A DNA stretch of 64,000 nucleotides from Burkholderiales bacterium (GTDB lineage Bacteria > Pseudomonadota > Gammaproteobacteria > Burkholderiales > UBA6910), in contig BPKG01000001.1 of the NCBI GenBank assembly GCA_026005015.1, positions 935,501-999,500 on the forward strand, given 5' to 3'. The translations under genes and the position numbers were made by a program. This document shows, one piece after another, positions 6,563 through 12,843 of the stretch (the stretch's first letter is position 1; every line of letters begins with the position of its first letter). Under the pieces are notes generated by a model. It did no database searches, was not told where the DNA came from, and saw only the letters and a list, made by a program, of their open reading frames with translations.

Positions 6563-8410
6563 ATGTTCGAGTTGCTGAAGAGCGTCAACGACCCCAAGGA
6601 CCTGCGCGCCCTGTCGCGCCAGGATCTCCATGTCCTGGCGCAGGAGCTGCGGGAATATCTGATCCAACTCGTGAGTCGCACCGGCGGCCACCTCTCCTCC
6701 AACCTGGGCACAGTGGAGCTCACCATCGCCCTGCACTACGTGTTCGAACGCCCCACGACCGCCTGGTCTGGGACGTGGGCCACCAGACCTACGGCCACAA
6801 GATCCTGACCGGGCGGCGCACCCTCATGGACCGCCTGCGCATGGAAGGCGGGCCCTCGGGCTTTCCGCGCCGCAGCGAGAGCGTCTACGACACCTTCGGC
6901 ACCGCCCACTCCAGCACCTCCATCAGCGCCGCCCTGGGCATGGCGGTGGCGGCCCAGCGGGCCGGGGTGAAGCGTCCACGTGGTGGCGGTGATCGGCGAC
7001 GGCGCCATGACGGCGGCATGGCCTACGAGGCGCTCAACAACGCCGGGGCCATGGACGCCAGACCTCCTGGTGATCCTCAACGACAACGAGATGTCCATCT
7101 CGGAGAACGTGGGCGCCATGAACCGGTACCTGGTGCGCCTGCTCTCCAGCCGCTTCTACCACCAGGCCAGGGAGGCGGGGCGCAGGATGCTGGAGAAGCT
7201 GCCCCCCGTGCTGGAGCTGGCCAAAAAGGCCGAGGACACATGAAGGGCATGGTGATGCCCGGTACCCTGTTCGAGGAGCTGGGCTTCAACTACATCGGCC
7301 CCATCGACGGCCACGACCTGGACACCCTGATCGAGACCCTGGACAACATCAAGCGCCTGGAGGGTCCCCAGTTCCTGCACATCGTGACCCGCAAGGGAGC
7401 CGGCTACAAGCTGGCAGAGGACAATCCTATCCTGTACCACGGGGTGAGCAAATTCGACCCGGCCCAGGGCATCCAGTCGGCCAAAGGCGGGGGATCCCCC
7501 ACCTACACTCAGGTTTTCGGCGACTGGCTGTGCGACATGGCGGCGGCCGACTCCCGCCTGGTGGCCATCACTCCGGCGATGCGGGAGGGTTCTGGGCTGG
7601 TGCGGTTCTCGGAGCTCTTCCCCGACCGCTACTTCGACGTGGGCATCGCCGAGCAGCACGCCGTCACTTTTGCCGCGGGGCTCGCCTGCGAGGGGCTCAA
7701 GCCCGTGGTGGCCATCTATTCCACCTTCCTGCAGCGGGCCTACGACCAGTTGATCCACGACGTGGCGATCCAGAACCTGCCGGTGGTCTTCGCCATCGAC
7801 CGGGGCGGGCTCGTGGGCGGGGATGGGGCCACCCACAACGGGGCCTTCGACCTTCACCTACCTGCGCTGCATCCCCAACATGACCGTGATGGCGCCGGCC
7901 GACGAAAACGAGTGCCGGCGCATGCTCTACACCGCGTTTCAGATGGACACGCCCACGGCGGTGCGCTACCCGCGGGGCAGCGGCCCGGGCGTGCCGGTGG
8001 AAAAGGAGATGCGCAGCCTTCCCATCGGCAAGGGCGAGGTCCGGCGCCGGGGCCGGCGGGTGGCCCTGCTTGCCTTCGGCGCCATGCTGGCGCCCAGCCT
8101 GGAGGCAGCCCAGGCGCTGGACGCGACAGCGGCCAACATGCGCTTCGTGAAGCCCCTGGACGAAACCCTGGTCCTGGAACTGGCCGCCTCCCACGAGCTG
8201 CTGGTGACGGTGGAGGAAAACGCCATCGCCGGGGGCGCGGGCAGCGCGGTGCTGGAGTGCCTGGCGCGCCATGGACTGAGTGTTCCCGTGCTCCAGCTCG
8301 GGCTCCCGGACCGATTCATCGACCATGGCAACCCCGCCCAACTGCTCAAAGGCTTGGGTCTCGACGGGGAAGGGATCGTGGCCACCGTGCGGCAGCAATT
8401 ACCCGAGTAG
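6563..8410 (+). CDS. dxs: 1-deoxy-D-xylulose-5-phosphate synthase, reading frame broken by six single-base indels
   Basis: The first enzyme of the MEP isoprenoid pathway, joining pyruvate and glyceraldehyde 3-phosphate with thiamine diphosphate. Homologous segments run in order: [17 protein letters not shown] (frame 1), [77 protein letters not shown] and [14 protein letters not shown]. The frame changes near 6,748 (-1), 6,974 (+1), 7,017 (-1), 7,063 (+1), 7,232 (-1) and 7,853 (+1). The net change is zero, so the 1,848 bases correspond to 615 residues, a normal DXS length. Conservation between breaks is intact, so these are most likely assembly errors. It lies 11 bases after ispA and is an essential gene in organisms using only the MEP pathway; ispH is present in this window. 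Confidence 0.85.
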
Positions 8411-8440
8411 TTTACTCAGAAATTACCCGGCCGGTATAAT
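8411..8440 (+). promoter_or_regulatory. Putative sigma-70 promoter for folE2
   Basis: A perfect TATAAT (8435-8440) lies 31 bases before the folE2 ATG. A weak -35 candidate TTTACT (8411-8416) sits 18 bases upstream of it. It starts at the dxs stop codon, implying folE2 has its own promoter. I could not identify a convincing Zur box around it. Confidence 0.5.
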
Positions 8441-10064: not shown

Positions 10065-10712
10065 CTAGAAGCGCTTTTTCAGGGTCAGGGTGCTGCCTTC
10101 CTGGCGCATCTCCACCCGGTTGAGAAAGCTCATGCCTAGCAGGATGACCGGCAGGCTATCGCCCTCCTGGACCGCCGCGTCCACGTTGCGCAGCAGAACC
10201 TCTCCCACGCGCACCTCGTCCAGCTTGATCAGGTAGATCGGCACCGGCCCGTTGGCGGTGGACGCGTAGCGCTGCACGCCCCCTTGATAGTGGAGGCCGA
10301 TGCGTTTCGCCTCCCGGCTGGGAATGGTTACCAGGGTCGCCCCGGTATCCACCACGAACTGCACCGGGGCGCCGTTGATCTGCCCGTTGGCGATGAAGTG
10401 GCCGCGCCCGTCGGAGATCAGGGTAGCACTGGCCCGGTCGCCGGTGGGACCGCCGCCGGTGACCGCCTGGCCCAATCCCACCGAGCGGCGCACCCCGTCC
10501 ACTTCGATCACCGCCCGGGCGCTGTCGGCAGCGAGGAGCTTCACTCCCTCGGGCGTCGTCTCGCCTTCCCGCACCGTGCGCGGCTTGCCGCCGTTCACCA
10601 CCATCACCGCCCGTCCCTTGGACAGGCCCACCACCTGGACATCGGTCGCATAGGCGGCAAAGGGCGCCCATAGGACGAGCAACAGAATTCGACTAAAATG
10701 CCGCGACTTCAC
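10065..10712 (-). CDS. Retropepsin-like aspartic protease, clan AA (TIGR02281-type)
   Basis: A 215-residue exported or membrane-anchored protein. Residues 1-22 form a signal-peptide-like segment (basic start, hydrophobic core ILLLVLWAPFAAYA). The C-terminal half contains the retropepsin active-site motif VDTGAT with the catalytic Asp near residue 122, followed by the flap-containing strands and the terminal GMSFLN motif. Single-domain proteins of this kind dimerise to form the active site. Translation starts at GTG 10712, only 21 bases from the divergent amidotransferase gene. Physiological substrate unknown. Confidence 0.82.
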   Translation of the reverse strand: MKSRHFSRILLLVLWAPFAAYATDVQVVGLSKGRAVMVVNGGKPRTVREGETTPEGVKLLAADSARAVIEVDGVRRSVGLGQAVTGGGPTGDRASATLISDGRGHFIANGQINGAPVQFVVDTGATLVTIPSREAKRIGLHYQGGVQRYASTANGPVPIYLIKLDEVRVGEVLLRNVDAAVQEGDSLPVILLGMSFLNRVEMRQEGSTLTLKKRF

Positions 10713-10733
10713 GAGCGAGACCCGGAGTCAGGG

Positions 10734-11444
10734 ATGAAACCCGTCGCCATCTTTCGCCACCACCCCGCCGAGGGCCCAGGGTATTTTGCCACATACCTGG
10801 AACGCCACGGTATCGCCTGGACACTCGTCCGCATCGACGCCGGCGATCCCGTTCCCGCGGACCTCGCTGGGTTCTCCGGCCTCGCCTTCATGGGCGGGCC
10901 CATGAGCGTGAACGACGATCTGCCCTGGATACCGCCCGTGCTCGAGCGGATCCGCACCGCCGTGGAGCGCGGCATGCCGGTGCTGGGCCATTGCCTGGGC
11001 GGCCAGCTCATGGCCAAGGCCCTGGGCGGTCGGGTCACGCGGGCGCCGCAAAAGGAGATCGGCTGGGGCGAGGTGACCCGCGCCGCCAACGCCGCGGCCG
11101 AGGAATGGTTCGCGGGACTGCCGGAGCGCTTTCTGTCCTTCCACTGGCACGGGGAGACGTTTTCCCTCCCTGAAGGCGCGACCCACGTGCTTTCGAGCCC
11201 CTTGTGCCAGAACCAGGGCTTCGCCCTCGGCAACAGCATCGCTTTGCAGTGCCACGTGGAAATGACCGAGGAGCTGGTGCGCGCCTGGTGCCAAGCGGGC
11301 AAGCGCGAGATCGAGGCCTCCCGCTCGAGCCCTGGCGTGCAGCCGCCGGAGGCCATGCTGCAAGACTTGGAGTCCCGGGTGAGCGTCCTGCACCGGGTCG
11401 CCGACGCAGTCTACGGGCGCTGGATCCGCAAACTGCAGGGATAG
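10734..11444 (+). CDS. Class I glutamine amidotransferase domain protein
   Basis: A 236-residue stand-alone GATase1-type hydrolase. The nucleophile elbow is GHCLGGQL with Cys87, and the other triad members are His174 and Glu176 in QCHVEMTEE. The ATG at 10734 is chosen because the upstream in-frame ATG at 10698 would overlap the divergent protease gene. The domain resembles GMP-synthase-like glutaminases that sit near unrelated partners; no synthase partner is adjacent. The target acceptor is therefore unknown. Six bases separate it from the sodium channel gene downstream, which suggests co-transcription. Confidence 0.85.
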   Translation: MKPVAIFRHHPAEGPGYFATYLERHGIAWTLVRIDAGDPVPADLAGFSGLAFMGGPMSVNDDLPWIPPVLERIRTAVERGMPVLGHCLGGQLMAKALGGRVTRAPQKEIGWGEVTRAANAAAEEWFAGLPERFLSFHWHGETFSLPEGATHVLSSPLCQNQGFALGNSIALQCHVEMTEELVRAWCQAGKREIEASRSSPGVQPPEAMLQDLESRVSVLHRVADAVYGRWIRKLQG

Positions 11445-11450
11445 ACAGCC

Positions 11451-12335
11451 ATGTCGGCCACGCTGACCGTCCGCCGCTCCTGGCGCGATCGGCTGCGGGA
11501 CTGGATCGAAGGACCCCAGGTGCAGCGGCTGGTGACCGTCCTCATCGTGGTCAATGCCGTGACCCTGGGCATGGAGACCTCGCCCGCCCTGATGGCCGCC
11601 GCCGGTCCGCTGCTGGTGGCGCTGGACGCGGCCATCTTTTCCGTTTTCGTCGTGGAGATCGCCTTGCGCGTGATCGCCCGGGGCCCGAGATTCTTCCGCG
11701 ACCCATGGAGCGTGTTCGATTTCGCGGTGGTGGCCATCGCCCTCGTCCCCTCGAGCGGCCCCTTCTCGGTGCTGCGGGCCCTCAGGATCCTGCGGGTGCT
11801 GCGGTTGCTCTCCATCGTGCCGTCCATGCGGCGGGTGGTGACGGCGCTCCTCGCCTCGATCCCCGGCATCGGCTCCATCGCCGTGATCCTGCTCATCCTT
11901 TTCTACGTGTTCGCGGTGATCGCCACCAATCTGTTCGGCCAGGCCTTCCCGGAGTGGTTCGGCTCGATCGGCCTCTCCATGTACACTTTGTTTCAGGTGA
12001 TGACCCTGGAGAGCTGGTCCATGGGCATCGCCCGGCCGGTGATGGAGAGATATCCTTACGCTTGGGCGTTTTTCATCCCCTTCATCCTGACCGCCACCTT
12101 CACTATGCTGAACCTGTTCATCGGCGTCATCGTCAACGCCATTCAGGTGCAGGAGAAGGAAATCCGGGAGGAAACCACCGCCGCGGTGGAGCACGCGGCG
12201 CGGGAGGTGGTGAGCGCCTCCCGGGCCGAGATCGAATCCCTGCGGGAGGAGCTGCGGGCGTTGCGGGCCCTGCTGGAGGCGCGTCTGCCCGCGGGCGCCG
12301 GCCAGAGGCAAGCGCCTAATCGCGGTAATTGGTGA
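11451..12335 (+). CDS. Bacterial voltage-gated sodium channel (NaChBac/NavAb family)
   Basis: A 294-residue single-repeat ion channel that should assemble as a tetramer in the inner membrane. S1-S3 lie within residues 23-100. S4 is the Arg ladder around residues 109-128 ([12 protein letters not shown] followed by SMRRV). The pore helix and selectivity filter read TLESWSM at residues 185-191, identical to the NavAb filter and typical of Na+-selective bacterial channels. S6 is about residues 203-232. The C-terminal 236-278 stretch is charged, heptad-like and fits the known coiled-coil that stabilises the tetramer. Its 3' end overlaps the convergent yajQ by 20 bases. Confidence 0.92.
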
Positions 12336-12801
12336 ACTGCAGGGGAAAGTCGGTCACCGACTTGCGCACGAGCTGGATCGCTTCCTGCAGCAGGTCCTTC
12401 TTCGCGCCGGAGACCCGTACGGCGTCGCCCTGGACGCTGGCCTGGACCTTGAGCTTGCTGTCCTTGACGAGCTTGACGATTCTTTTCGCCAGGTCGCTGT
12501 CCACCCCGACCCGGGCGGTGACGACCTGCTTGACCTTGTTGCCACCGATGGCCTCCACCTTCCCCCGCTCCAGGCAGCGTACGTCGACGCCCCGTTTGGC
12601 GAGCTTGGCGAGCAGGATGTCGTTCACCTGGCCCAGCTTGAACTCGTCATCGGCATAGAGGGTAAGCTGGTACTCCGCCAGCTCCACCCGGGCGTCGGAG
12701 CCCTTGAAATCGAAGCGGGTGGAAATTTCCTTGTTCGCCTGGTCCACGGCGTTGCGCAGCTCCTGCTTGTCCACCTGGGAGACGATATCGAACGAGGGCA
12801 T
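12316..12801 (-). CDS. yajQ: YajQ family cyclic-di-GMP-binding protein
   Basis: A 161-residue protein starting [15 protein letters not shown], the canonical YajQ N-terminus; an upstream TTG-initiated version adds only five residues and is not favoured. The protein consists of two ferredoxin-like domains and includes [11 protein letters not shown] and [20 protein letters not shown]. Family members bind nucleic acid or nucleotides, and a Xanthomonas homologue binds c-di-GMP; the role here is inferred by homology. It converges with and overlaps the sodium channel gene by 20 bases and is followed upstream by argG. Confidence 0.92.
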
Positions 12802-12843
12802 GGCCAATTTCCCCAAACAAGAAAGATAAGATCTGTGGCCCCA

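What the first reader, a model, noticed from the sequence alone, without database searches (positions are those of the whole stretch)
11451..12335. NavAb-type sodium channel with identical TLESWSM filter
The protein has a complete S4 Arg ladder and the same seven-residue filter as the structurally characterised NavAb channel, in an organism with no other obvious sodium-motive genes in the window. It follows a glutaminase-like gene by six bases, an unexplained pairing.
Basis: partly seen in the sequence, partly recalled or inferred. Interest (0 to 1): 0.5.

Follow-up and report, generated by a model that had tools for sequence, protein, structure and literature searches.

The report
Ordinary bacterial voltage-gated sodium channel
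The gene encodes a normal bacterial voltage-gated sodium channel of a well-studied kind, and the enzyme gene just before it looks like an older resident of that spot next to which the channel gene came to sit in one bacterial family.

Summary
Window 11451-12335 (+) encodes a 294-aa channel with four S4 arginines, filter TLESWSM (185-191) and a helical C-terminal tail. It matches Pfam Ion_trans (155 bits) and solved NavMs and NavAb (275 and 258 bits); its predicted fold agrees.

The filter identity is not special: 78 of 80 named relatives have TLESWSM, 2 have TLESWAM. The glutamine-amidotransferase (GATase) pairing is real but local: 3 of 3 Nav-bearing genomes among the 4 held of this family, gaps 6, 7 and 8 nt. 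It is absent from the other 79 named loci and from 28 Nav-like loci of the order, 3 of them repeats. The fourth family genome has protease-GATase-yajQ-argG without Nav, so Nav most simply entered an older block.

The genome also has Rnf genes, a sodium/solute symporter, Na+/H+-exchanger homologues and flagellins. Voltage-gated Na+ entry is expected; physiological role untested. New member of a known kind, low interest.

The parts
11451..12335 (+). Bacterial voltage-gated sodium channel (BacNav, NavAb/NavMs type), 294 aa; S1-S4 sensor, TLESWSM pore, long S6 and C-terminal helix
   Evidence: Pfam PF00520 155 bits; PDB NavMs/NavAb; AlphaFold2 model mean pLDDT 85.2
11775..11804 (+). S4 codons R109-R118, the RxxRxxRxxR ladder
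   Evidence: R109, R112, R115, R118 invariant in 54 sequences
12003..12023 (+). Selectivity filter TLESWSM, residues 185-191
12141..12284 (+). End of S6 and cytoplasmic C-terminal helix (about residues 231-278), predicted as part of one continuous helix 202-278; coiled-coil bundle inferred by analogy with NavMs
   Evidence: phmmer match to NavAb runs to residue 276; NavMs coiled coil from PMC3791462 (abstract and passages)
10734..11444 (+). Class-I glutamine amidotransferase (GATase); start 10734 rather than the 10698 of the longest ORF is inferred, since 6 of 9 other genomes align only from residue 10-13
10065..10712 (-). Clan AA aspartic protease (TIGR02281, 105.3 bits, cut-off 57.95), divergent neighbour of GATase; part of the older block
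12316..12816 (-). YajQ family gene (PRK05412, 221.4 bits, cut-off 146), convergent with Nav, tails overlap by 20 nt; part of the older block

Best explanation
The gene is an ordinary BacNav. Four identical subunits should form a tetramer; the S4 arginines sense depolarisation, the pore opens, Na+ passes four TLESWSM loops, and the C-terminal helices form a four-helix coiled coil that holds the tetramer and shapes inactivation. Shown here: family, fold, S4 ladder, filter and tail helix. Inferred from characterised relatives: tetramer, voltage gating, Na+ selectivity, coiled coil. The most likely role is controlled Na+ re-entry that feeds the cell's Na+/H+ antiport and any Na+-coupled systems (inferred, as in alkaliphilic Bacillus). 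The GATase next door is a positional partner: Nav most likely entered a pre-existing protease-GATase-yajQ block in this one family and may be translationally coupled to GATase there, without a functional link.
For: Ion_trans 155 bits. NavMs/NavAb matches, the NavMs alignment carrying the filter unchanged. Four S4 arginines and filter E187 invariant in 54 sequences. AlphaFold2 model matching NavAb 6mvy at Z 18.1, rmsd 3.6, 223 aligned, and NavMs 5hvx at Z 17.4, rmsd 6.4, 247 aligned. Pairing only in G000, G001 and G002 with 6, 7 and 8 nt gaps. Empty arrangement aspPr-GATase-yajQ-argG in G003; aspPr beside GATase in 7 of 7 loci L094-L100, and yajQ downstream in 4 of those 7. The family's three Nav proteins form one group, SH-aLRT 98 (quick tree).
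Against: No current was measured. A Na+ re-entry role rests on alkaliphilic Bacillus work (PMC4225499, abstract and passages), a distant host. The 6-8 nt spacing kept in 3 genomes could mean more than accident. The insertion reading rests on one empty site in the same family; loss in G003 is possible. What lies between GATase and yajQ in L095, L097 and L099 was not identified, and flanks of about 1.5 kb leave yajQ untested in L096, L098 and L100. Only 4 genomes of the family are held.
Confidence: 0.88

Rival explanations
1. GATase and Nav form a functional two-gene operon in this family, for example an amidotransferase that makes or removes an amidated solute or ligand whose level sets, or is set by, Na+ entry.
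For: Same strand and order in 3 of 3 Nav-bearing family genomes with 6, 7 and 8 nt gaps, kept while the Nav proteins diverged to 74% identity.
Against: GATase homologues at E 1e-40 or better occur in 39 of 60 genomes (own included), while 4 of those 60 have a strong Nav, E under 1e-100. In G008 the two genes lie on different contigs. G003 keeps GATase without Nav. No GATase homologue in the other 79 named Nav loci.
Confidence: 0.06
2. The channel conducts something other than Na+ (Ca2+ or non-selective), like the ancestor-like BacNavs (AnclNavs).
For: It scores well against the multi-domain Cav3 chains too, as expected from shared ancestry and four repeated domains.
Against: The filter is exactly the NavAb one. 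CavMr has TLEGWVD with glycine at position 4 and Asp at 7 (PMC7041947, passages); here these are Ser and Met.
Confidence: 0.04
3. Decayed or non-expressed gene.
For: A dxs gene in the window is split over frames, so indels, real or of the assembly, exist here. No sigma-70-like promoter was found in 10500-12600, where shuffles give a mean of 0.2, so this says little.
Against: Nav is one open frame with no stops, invariant functional residues and 86% identity with a congener's frame without stops.
Confidence: 0.02

Closest known systems
NavMs (Magnetococcus marinus; PDB 5hvx, 6sx5 and others)
   Same: Six-helix subunit, S4 arginines, TLESWSM filter, C-terminal helix; 275 bits over residues 14-247; 44-53% identity in the Foldseek alignments
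   Different: No functional data for the window protein; the sequence match to NavMs stops at about residue 247
NavAb (Arcobacter butzleri; PDB 3rw0, 3rvy, 5vb2 and others)
   Same: Same filter, same fold, Z 18.1, rmsd 3.6, 223 aligned; sequence match to residue 276
   Different: 44-50% identity in the Foldseek alignments
NaChBac, NavBp and NsvBa of alkaliphilic Bacillus
   Same: BacNav superfamily, TLESWxxG filter stated as conserved (PMC4225499, passages)
   Different: NaChBac filter is TLESWASG and NsvBa TLDSWGSG; the Bacillus group is a separate branch from the NavAb-like group in PMC7041947 (passages)
AnclNavs (CavMr, NavPp)
   Same: One-domain relatives, also found in proteobacteria (PMC7041947, passages)
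   Different: CavMr TLEGWVD, NavPp TLEDWTD; the window channel has TLESWSM

Membership tests
Canonical BacNav, NavAb/NavMs-like | Single-domain six-helix Ion_trans subunit | tested here: met
   PF00520 155 bits; fold
Canonical BacNav, NavAb/NavMs-like | S4 with arginines every third residue | tested here: met
   R109, R112, R115, R118 invariant in 54 sequences
Canonical BacNav, NavAb/NavMs-like | Filter TLESW with Glu at position 3 | tested here: met
   TLESWSM at 185-191; TLESWxxG stated as conserved in PMC4225499 (passages)
Canonical BacNav, NavAb/NavMs-like | Cytoplasmic C-terminal helix forming a tetrameric coiled coil | tested here: inconclusive
   Helix 202-278 in the monomer model; no tetramer was modelled
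Canonical BacNav, NavAb/NavMs-like | Depolarisation-activated, Na+-selective current | not testable with these tools
   Needs electrophysiology
Canonical BacNav, NavAb/NavMs-like | Placement in the NavAb-like branch rather than the Bacillus or AnclNav branches | tested here: inconclusive
   The tree held no reference channels; PDB scores favour NavMs/NavAb among single-domain chains
AnclNav (CavMr/NavPp group) | Filter like the two characterised members: Gly or Asp at position 4 and Asp at position 7 (TLEGWVD, TLEDWTD) | tested here: not met
   Ser and Met here; filters from PMC7041947 passages
Class-I glutamine amidotransferase (upstream gene) | GATase domain with Cys-His-Glu residues | tested here: met
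   PF00117 59 bits; C99, H186, E188 in 15 of 15 rows, 10 genomes

The most novel reading that the evidence does not exclude
In this betaproteobacterial family the GATase and the sodium channel have become a genuine two-gene operon in which an amidotransferase activity and Na+ entry are functionally linked, for instance in osmotic or pH adaptation.
Probability: 0.05. Interest if true: 0.4.

Novelty: new member of a known kind. Interest (0 to 1): 0.12.

Why it matters
It matters little as a discovery: it adds one well-formed member to a widely distributed, structurally solved channel family. It does give a comparison of filled and empty sites within one family, which could help ask what a cell gains from a BacNav, a question I recall as still open outside alkaliphilic Bacillus (recalled; no dedicated search establishes it).

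Tried and rejected
Special significance of the filter: rejected, 78 of 80 relatives share it. The 80 are the best of 394 confirmed hits, and one retrieval pattern (MYTLFQVM) lies directly before the filter, so divergent channels are under-represented. Among 31 Nav-like loci from the window's order, own included and repeat loci of the three paired genomes dropped, 16 have TLESWSM and 15 do not; one search fetched loci for 30 of its matches at most, best first.

GATase-Nav as a widespread module: rejected. A conserved neighbour of Nav elsewhere: clustering the three ORFs either side in 80 loci gave no cluster present in more than 6 loci; my ORF calling there was crude and some clusters look like shadow frames.

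Foreign composition of Nav: not seen, GC 0.661 and GC3 0.895 against nine neighbours at 0.611-0.687 and 0.855-0.936. Origin of the Nav gene: the quick tree (109 rows; one fragment of 81 aa was dropped) puts the family's three Navs in a 26-row set, SH-aLRT 94 and unresolved inside, that also holds alpha-, beta- and gammaproteobacterial rows and one Desulfuromonadales row; the careful tree did not finish, so no donor is claimed.

A sodium-pumping NQR: the one PF03116 match is RnfD (rnfD 356.4 bits, cut-off 207.05; nqrB 112.5, cut-off 349.9). MotA: the best of 5 MotA_ExbB matches is TolQ; the other four were not resolved, so no flagellar stator type is claimed. A paper search on distribution and role listed nothing I could use.

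Full report
What is there. The ORF at 11451-12335 (+) is a single open frame of 294 aa. Pfam gives Ion_trans at 155 bits; it is the only Ion_trans match at E 0.001 or better in the 3.38-Mb genome, which is held as 95% complete. Against solved structures the best single-domain matches are NavMs (5hvx, 275 bits, residues 14-247) and NavAb (3rw0, 258 bits, residues 14-276); multi-domain Cav3 chains score a little higher (up to 284 bits) because several domains add up (names of these entries). The residue alignment to NavMs carries the filter unchanged.

Functional residues. In a 54-sequence alignment R109, R112, R115 and R118 of S4, and T185, L186, E187, S188, W189 and M191 of the filter, are invariant, S190 nearly so. 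The NavAb filter is given as TLESWSM in PMC9204039 (passages seen) and PMC6259924 (passages seen). AlphaFold2 with this alignment gave mean pLDDT 85.2 and pTM 0.64, with one helix from 202 to 278 running out of S6. Foldseek's first 50 rows are, by their titles or as I recall the entries, NavAb, CavAb (made from NavAb) and NavMs. VIA-align gives NavAb 6mvy Z 18.1, rmsd 3.6, 223 aligned; NavMs 5hvx Z 17.4, rmsd 6.4, 247 aligned; and one CatSper chain Z 17.1, rmsd 3.8, 264 aligned at 20% identity.

How common. Of 394 confirmed relatives in one scan, the best 80 were kept; 78 of 80 have TLESWSM and 2 TLESWAM. In the window's order 51 of 349 sampled genomes match at E 0.001 or better, own genome included; by my count of that listing 19 of 349 reach E 1e-60, so the channel is patchy. 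PMC7041947 (passages) divides one-domain channels into Bacillus, NavAb-like and ancestor-like groups and says proteobacteria can hold both of the last two.

The pairing. GATase ends 6 nt before Nav here, 7 nt in the congener G001 and 8 nt in L002. L002 is DKBC01000350.1 of Betaproteobacteria bacterium UBA6910; G002 contig C197 has the same length, 7189, and the same matches, so I take them as one record and count it once. These are the 3 Nav-bearing genomes among the 4 held of the family. Outside it, no GATase homologue lies in the other 79 named loci. Some loci are cut by contig ends: of all 80, 76 hold at least 1 kb upstream of Nav, 69 at least 3.5 kb, and 51 at least 3.5 kb on both sides. 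None lies in 28 Nav-like loci of the order, L085-L088 and L101-L124 (flanks about 1.5 kb or less). Of these 28, L102, L103 and L104 repeat L020, L012 and L060 (identical proteins), and 15 are the divergent channels with other filters.

Why they are neighbours. GATase is old at this place. In G003, same family and no Nav, the order is folE2, aspartic protease (-), GATase, yajQ (-), argG (-), with GATase and yajQ about 70 bp apart. In the seven fetched GATase loci outside the three paired genomes (L094-L100), the aspartic protease adjoins GATase in 7 of 7, folE2 is within reach in 6 of 7 and yajQ lies downstream in 4 of 7; flanks are about 1.5 kb, so an absence there is not shown. These seven are the best-scoring others of 60 genomes searched. 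The filled and empty arrangements in the family therefore differ by Nav between GATase and yajQ. Gain in the family is the simplest reading; loss in G003 is not excluded.

Sodium context. The genome has an Rnf-type cluster (RnfA 272.6 bits against cut-off 229.3, RnfD 356.4 against 207.05; the other Rnf genes beside them I recognised by eye), a VC_2705-family sodium/solute symporter (535 against 320.75), a second SSF-superfamily protein below its cut-off (115.9 against 184), 8 Na_H_Exchanger matches, two of which may be pieces of one gene, and 2 flagellin matches. Which ion these use was not tested. In alkaliphilic Bacillus, Nav channels admit Na+ that antiporters then use for pH homeostasis (PMC4225499, abstract and passages). 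I transfer that role here as inference only.

Verdict. It is a new, uncharacterised member of a known channel family, with an unremarkable filter and a neighbour best explained by local gene order.

Noticed in passing
window 6563-8439 (+): The dxs (DXP synthase) gene is spread over alternating reading frames: N-terminal, middle and C-terminal domain pieces lie in different frames, so the gene is either decayed or hit by assembly indels.
   Followed up: partly
G000:C1:529752-530244 (L149, L150, L158): The VC_2705-type sodium symporter also changes frame between its first 61 profile positions and the rest, which hints at assembly indels as a shared cause in this genome.
   Followed up: partly
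L086, L087, L088, L112-L114, L116-L124: 15 of 31 Nav-like loci from the same order carry other filters (TLEGWAE, TLEAWT, TLEGWG, TVEGWP, TFDNW); 11 of the 15 have Gly at position 4 as in the calcium-selective CavMr. Candidate ancestor-like or Ca2+ channels; position 7 is unsure because the pairwise alignments are gapped there.
   Followed up: partly
G271 (L104 and G271:C34:17187-17969): One genome of the order holds both a TLESWSM Nav (E 8.9e-106) and a second channel 42% identical to the window's.
   Followed up: no
window 12316-12335: The tails of Nav and the convergent yajQ gene overlap by 20 nt here but not in G001 or UBA6910.
   Followed up: no
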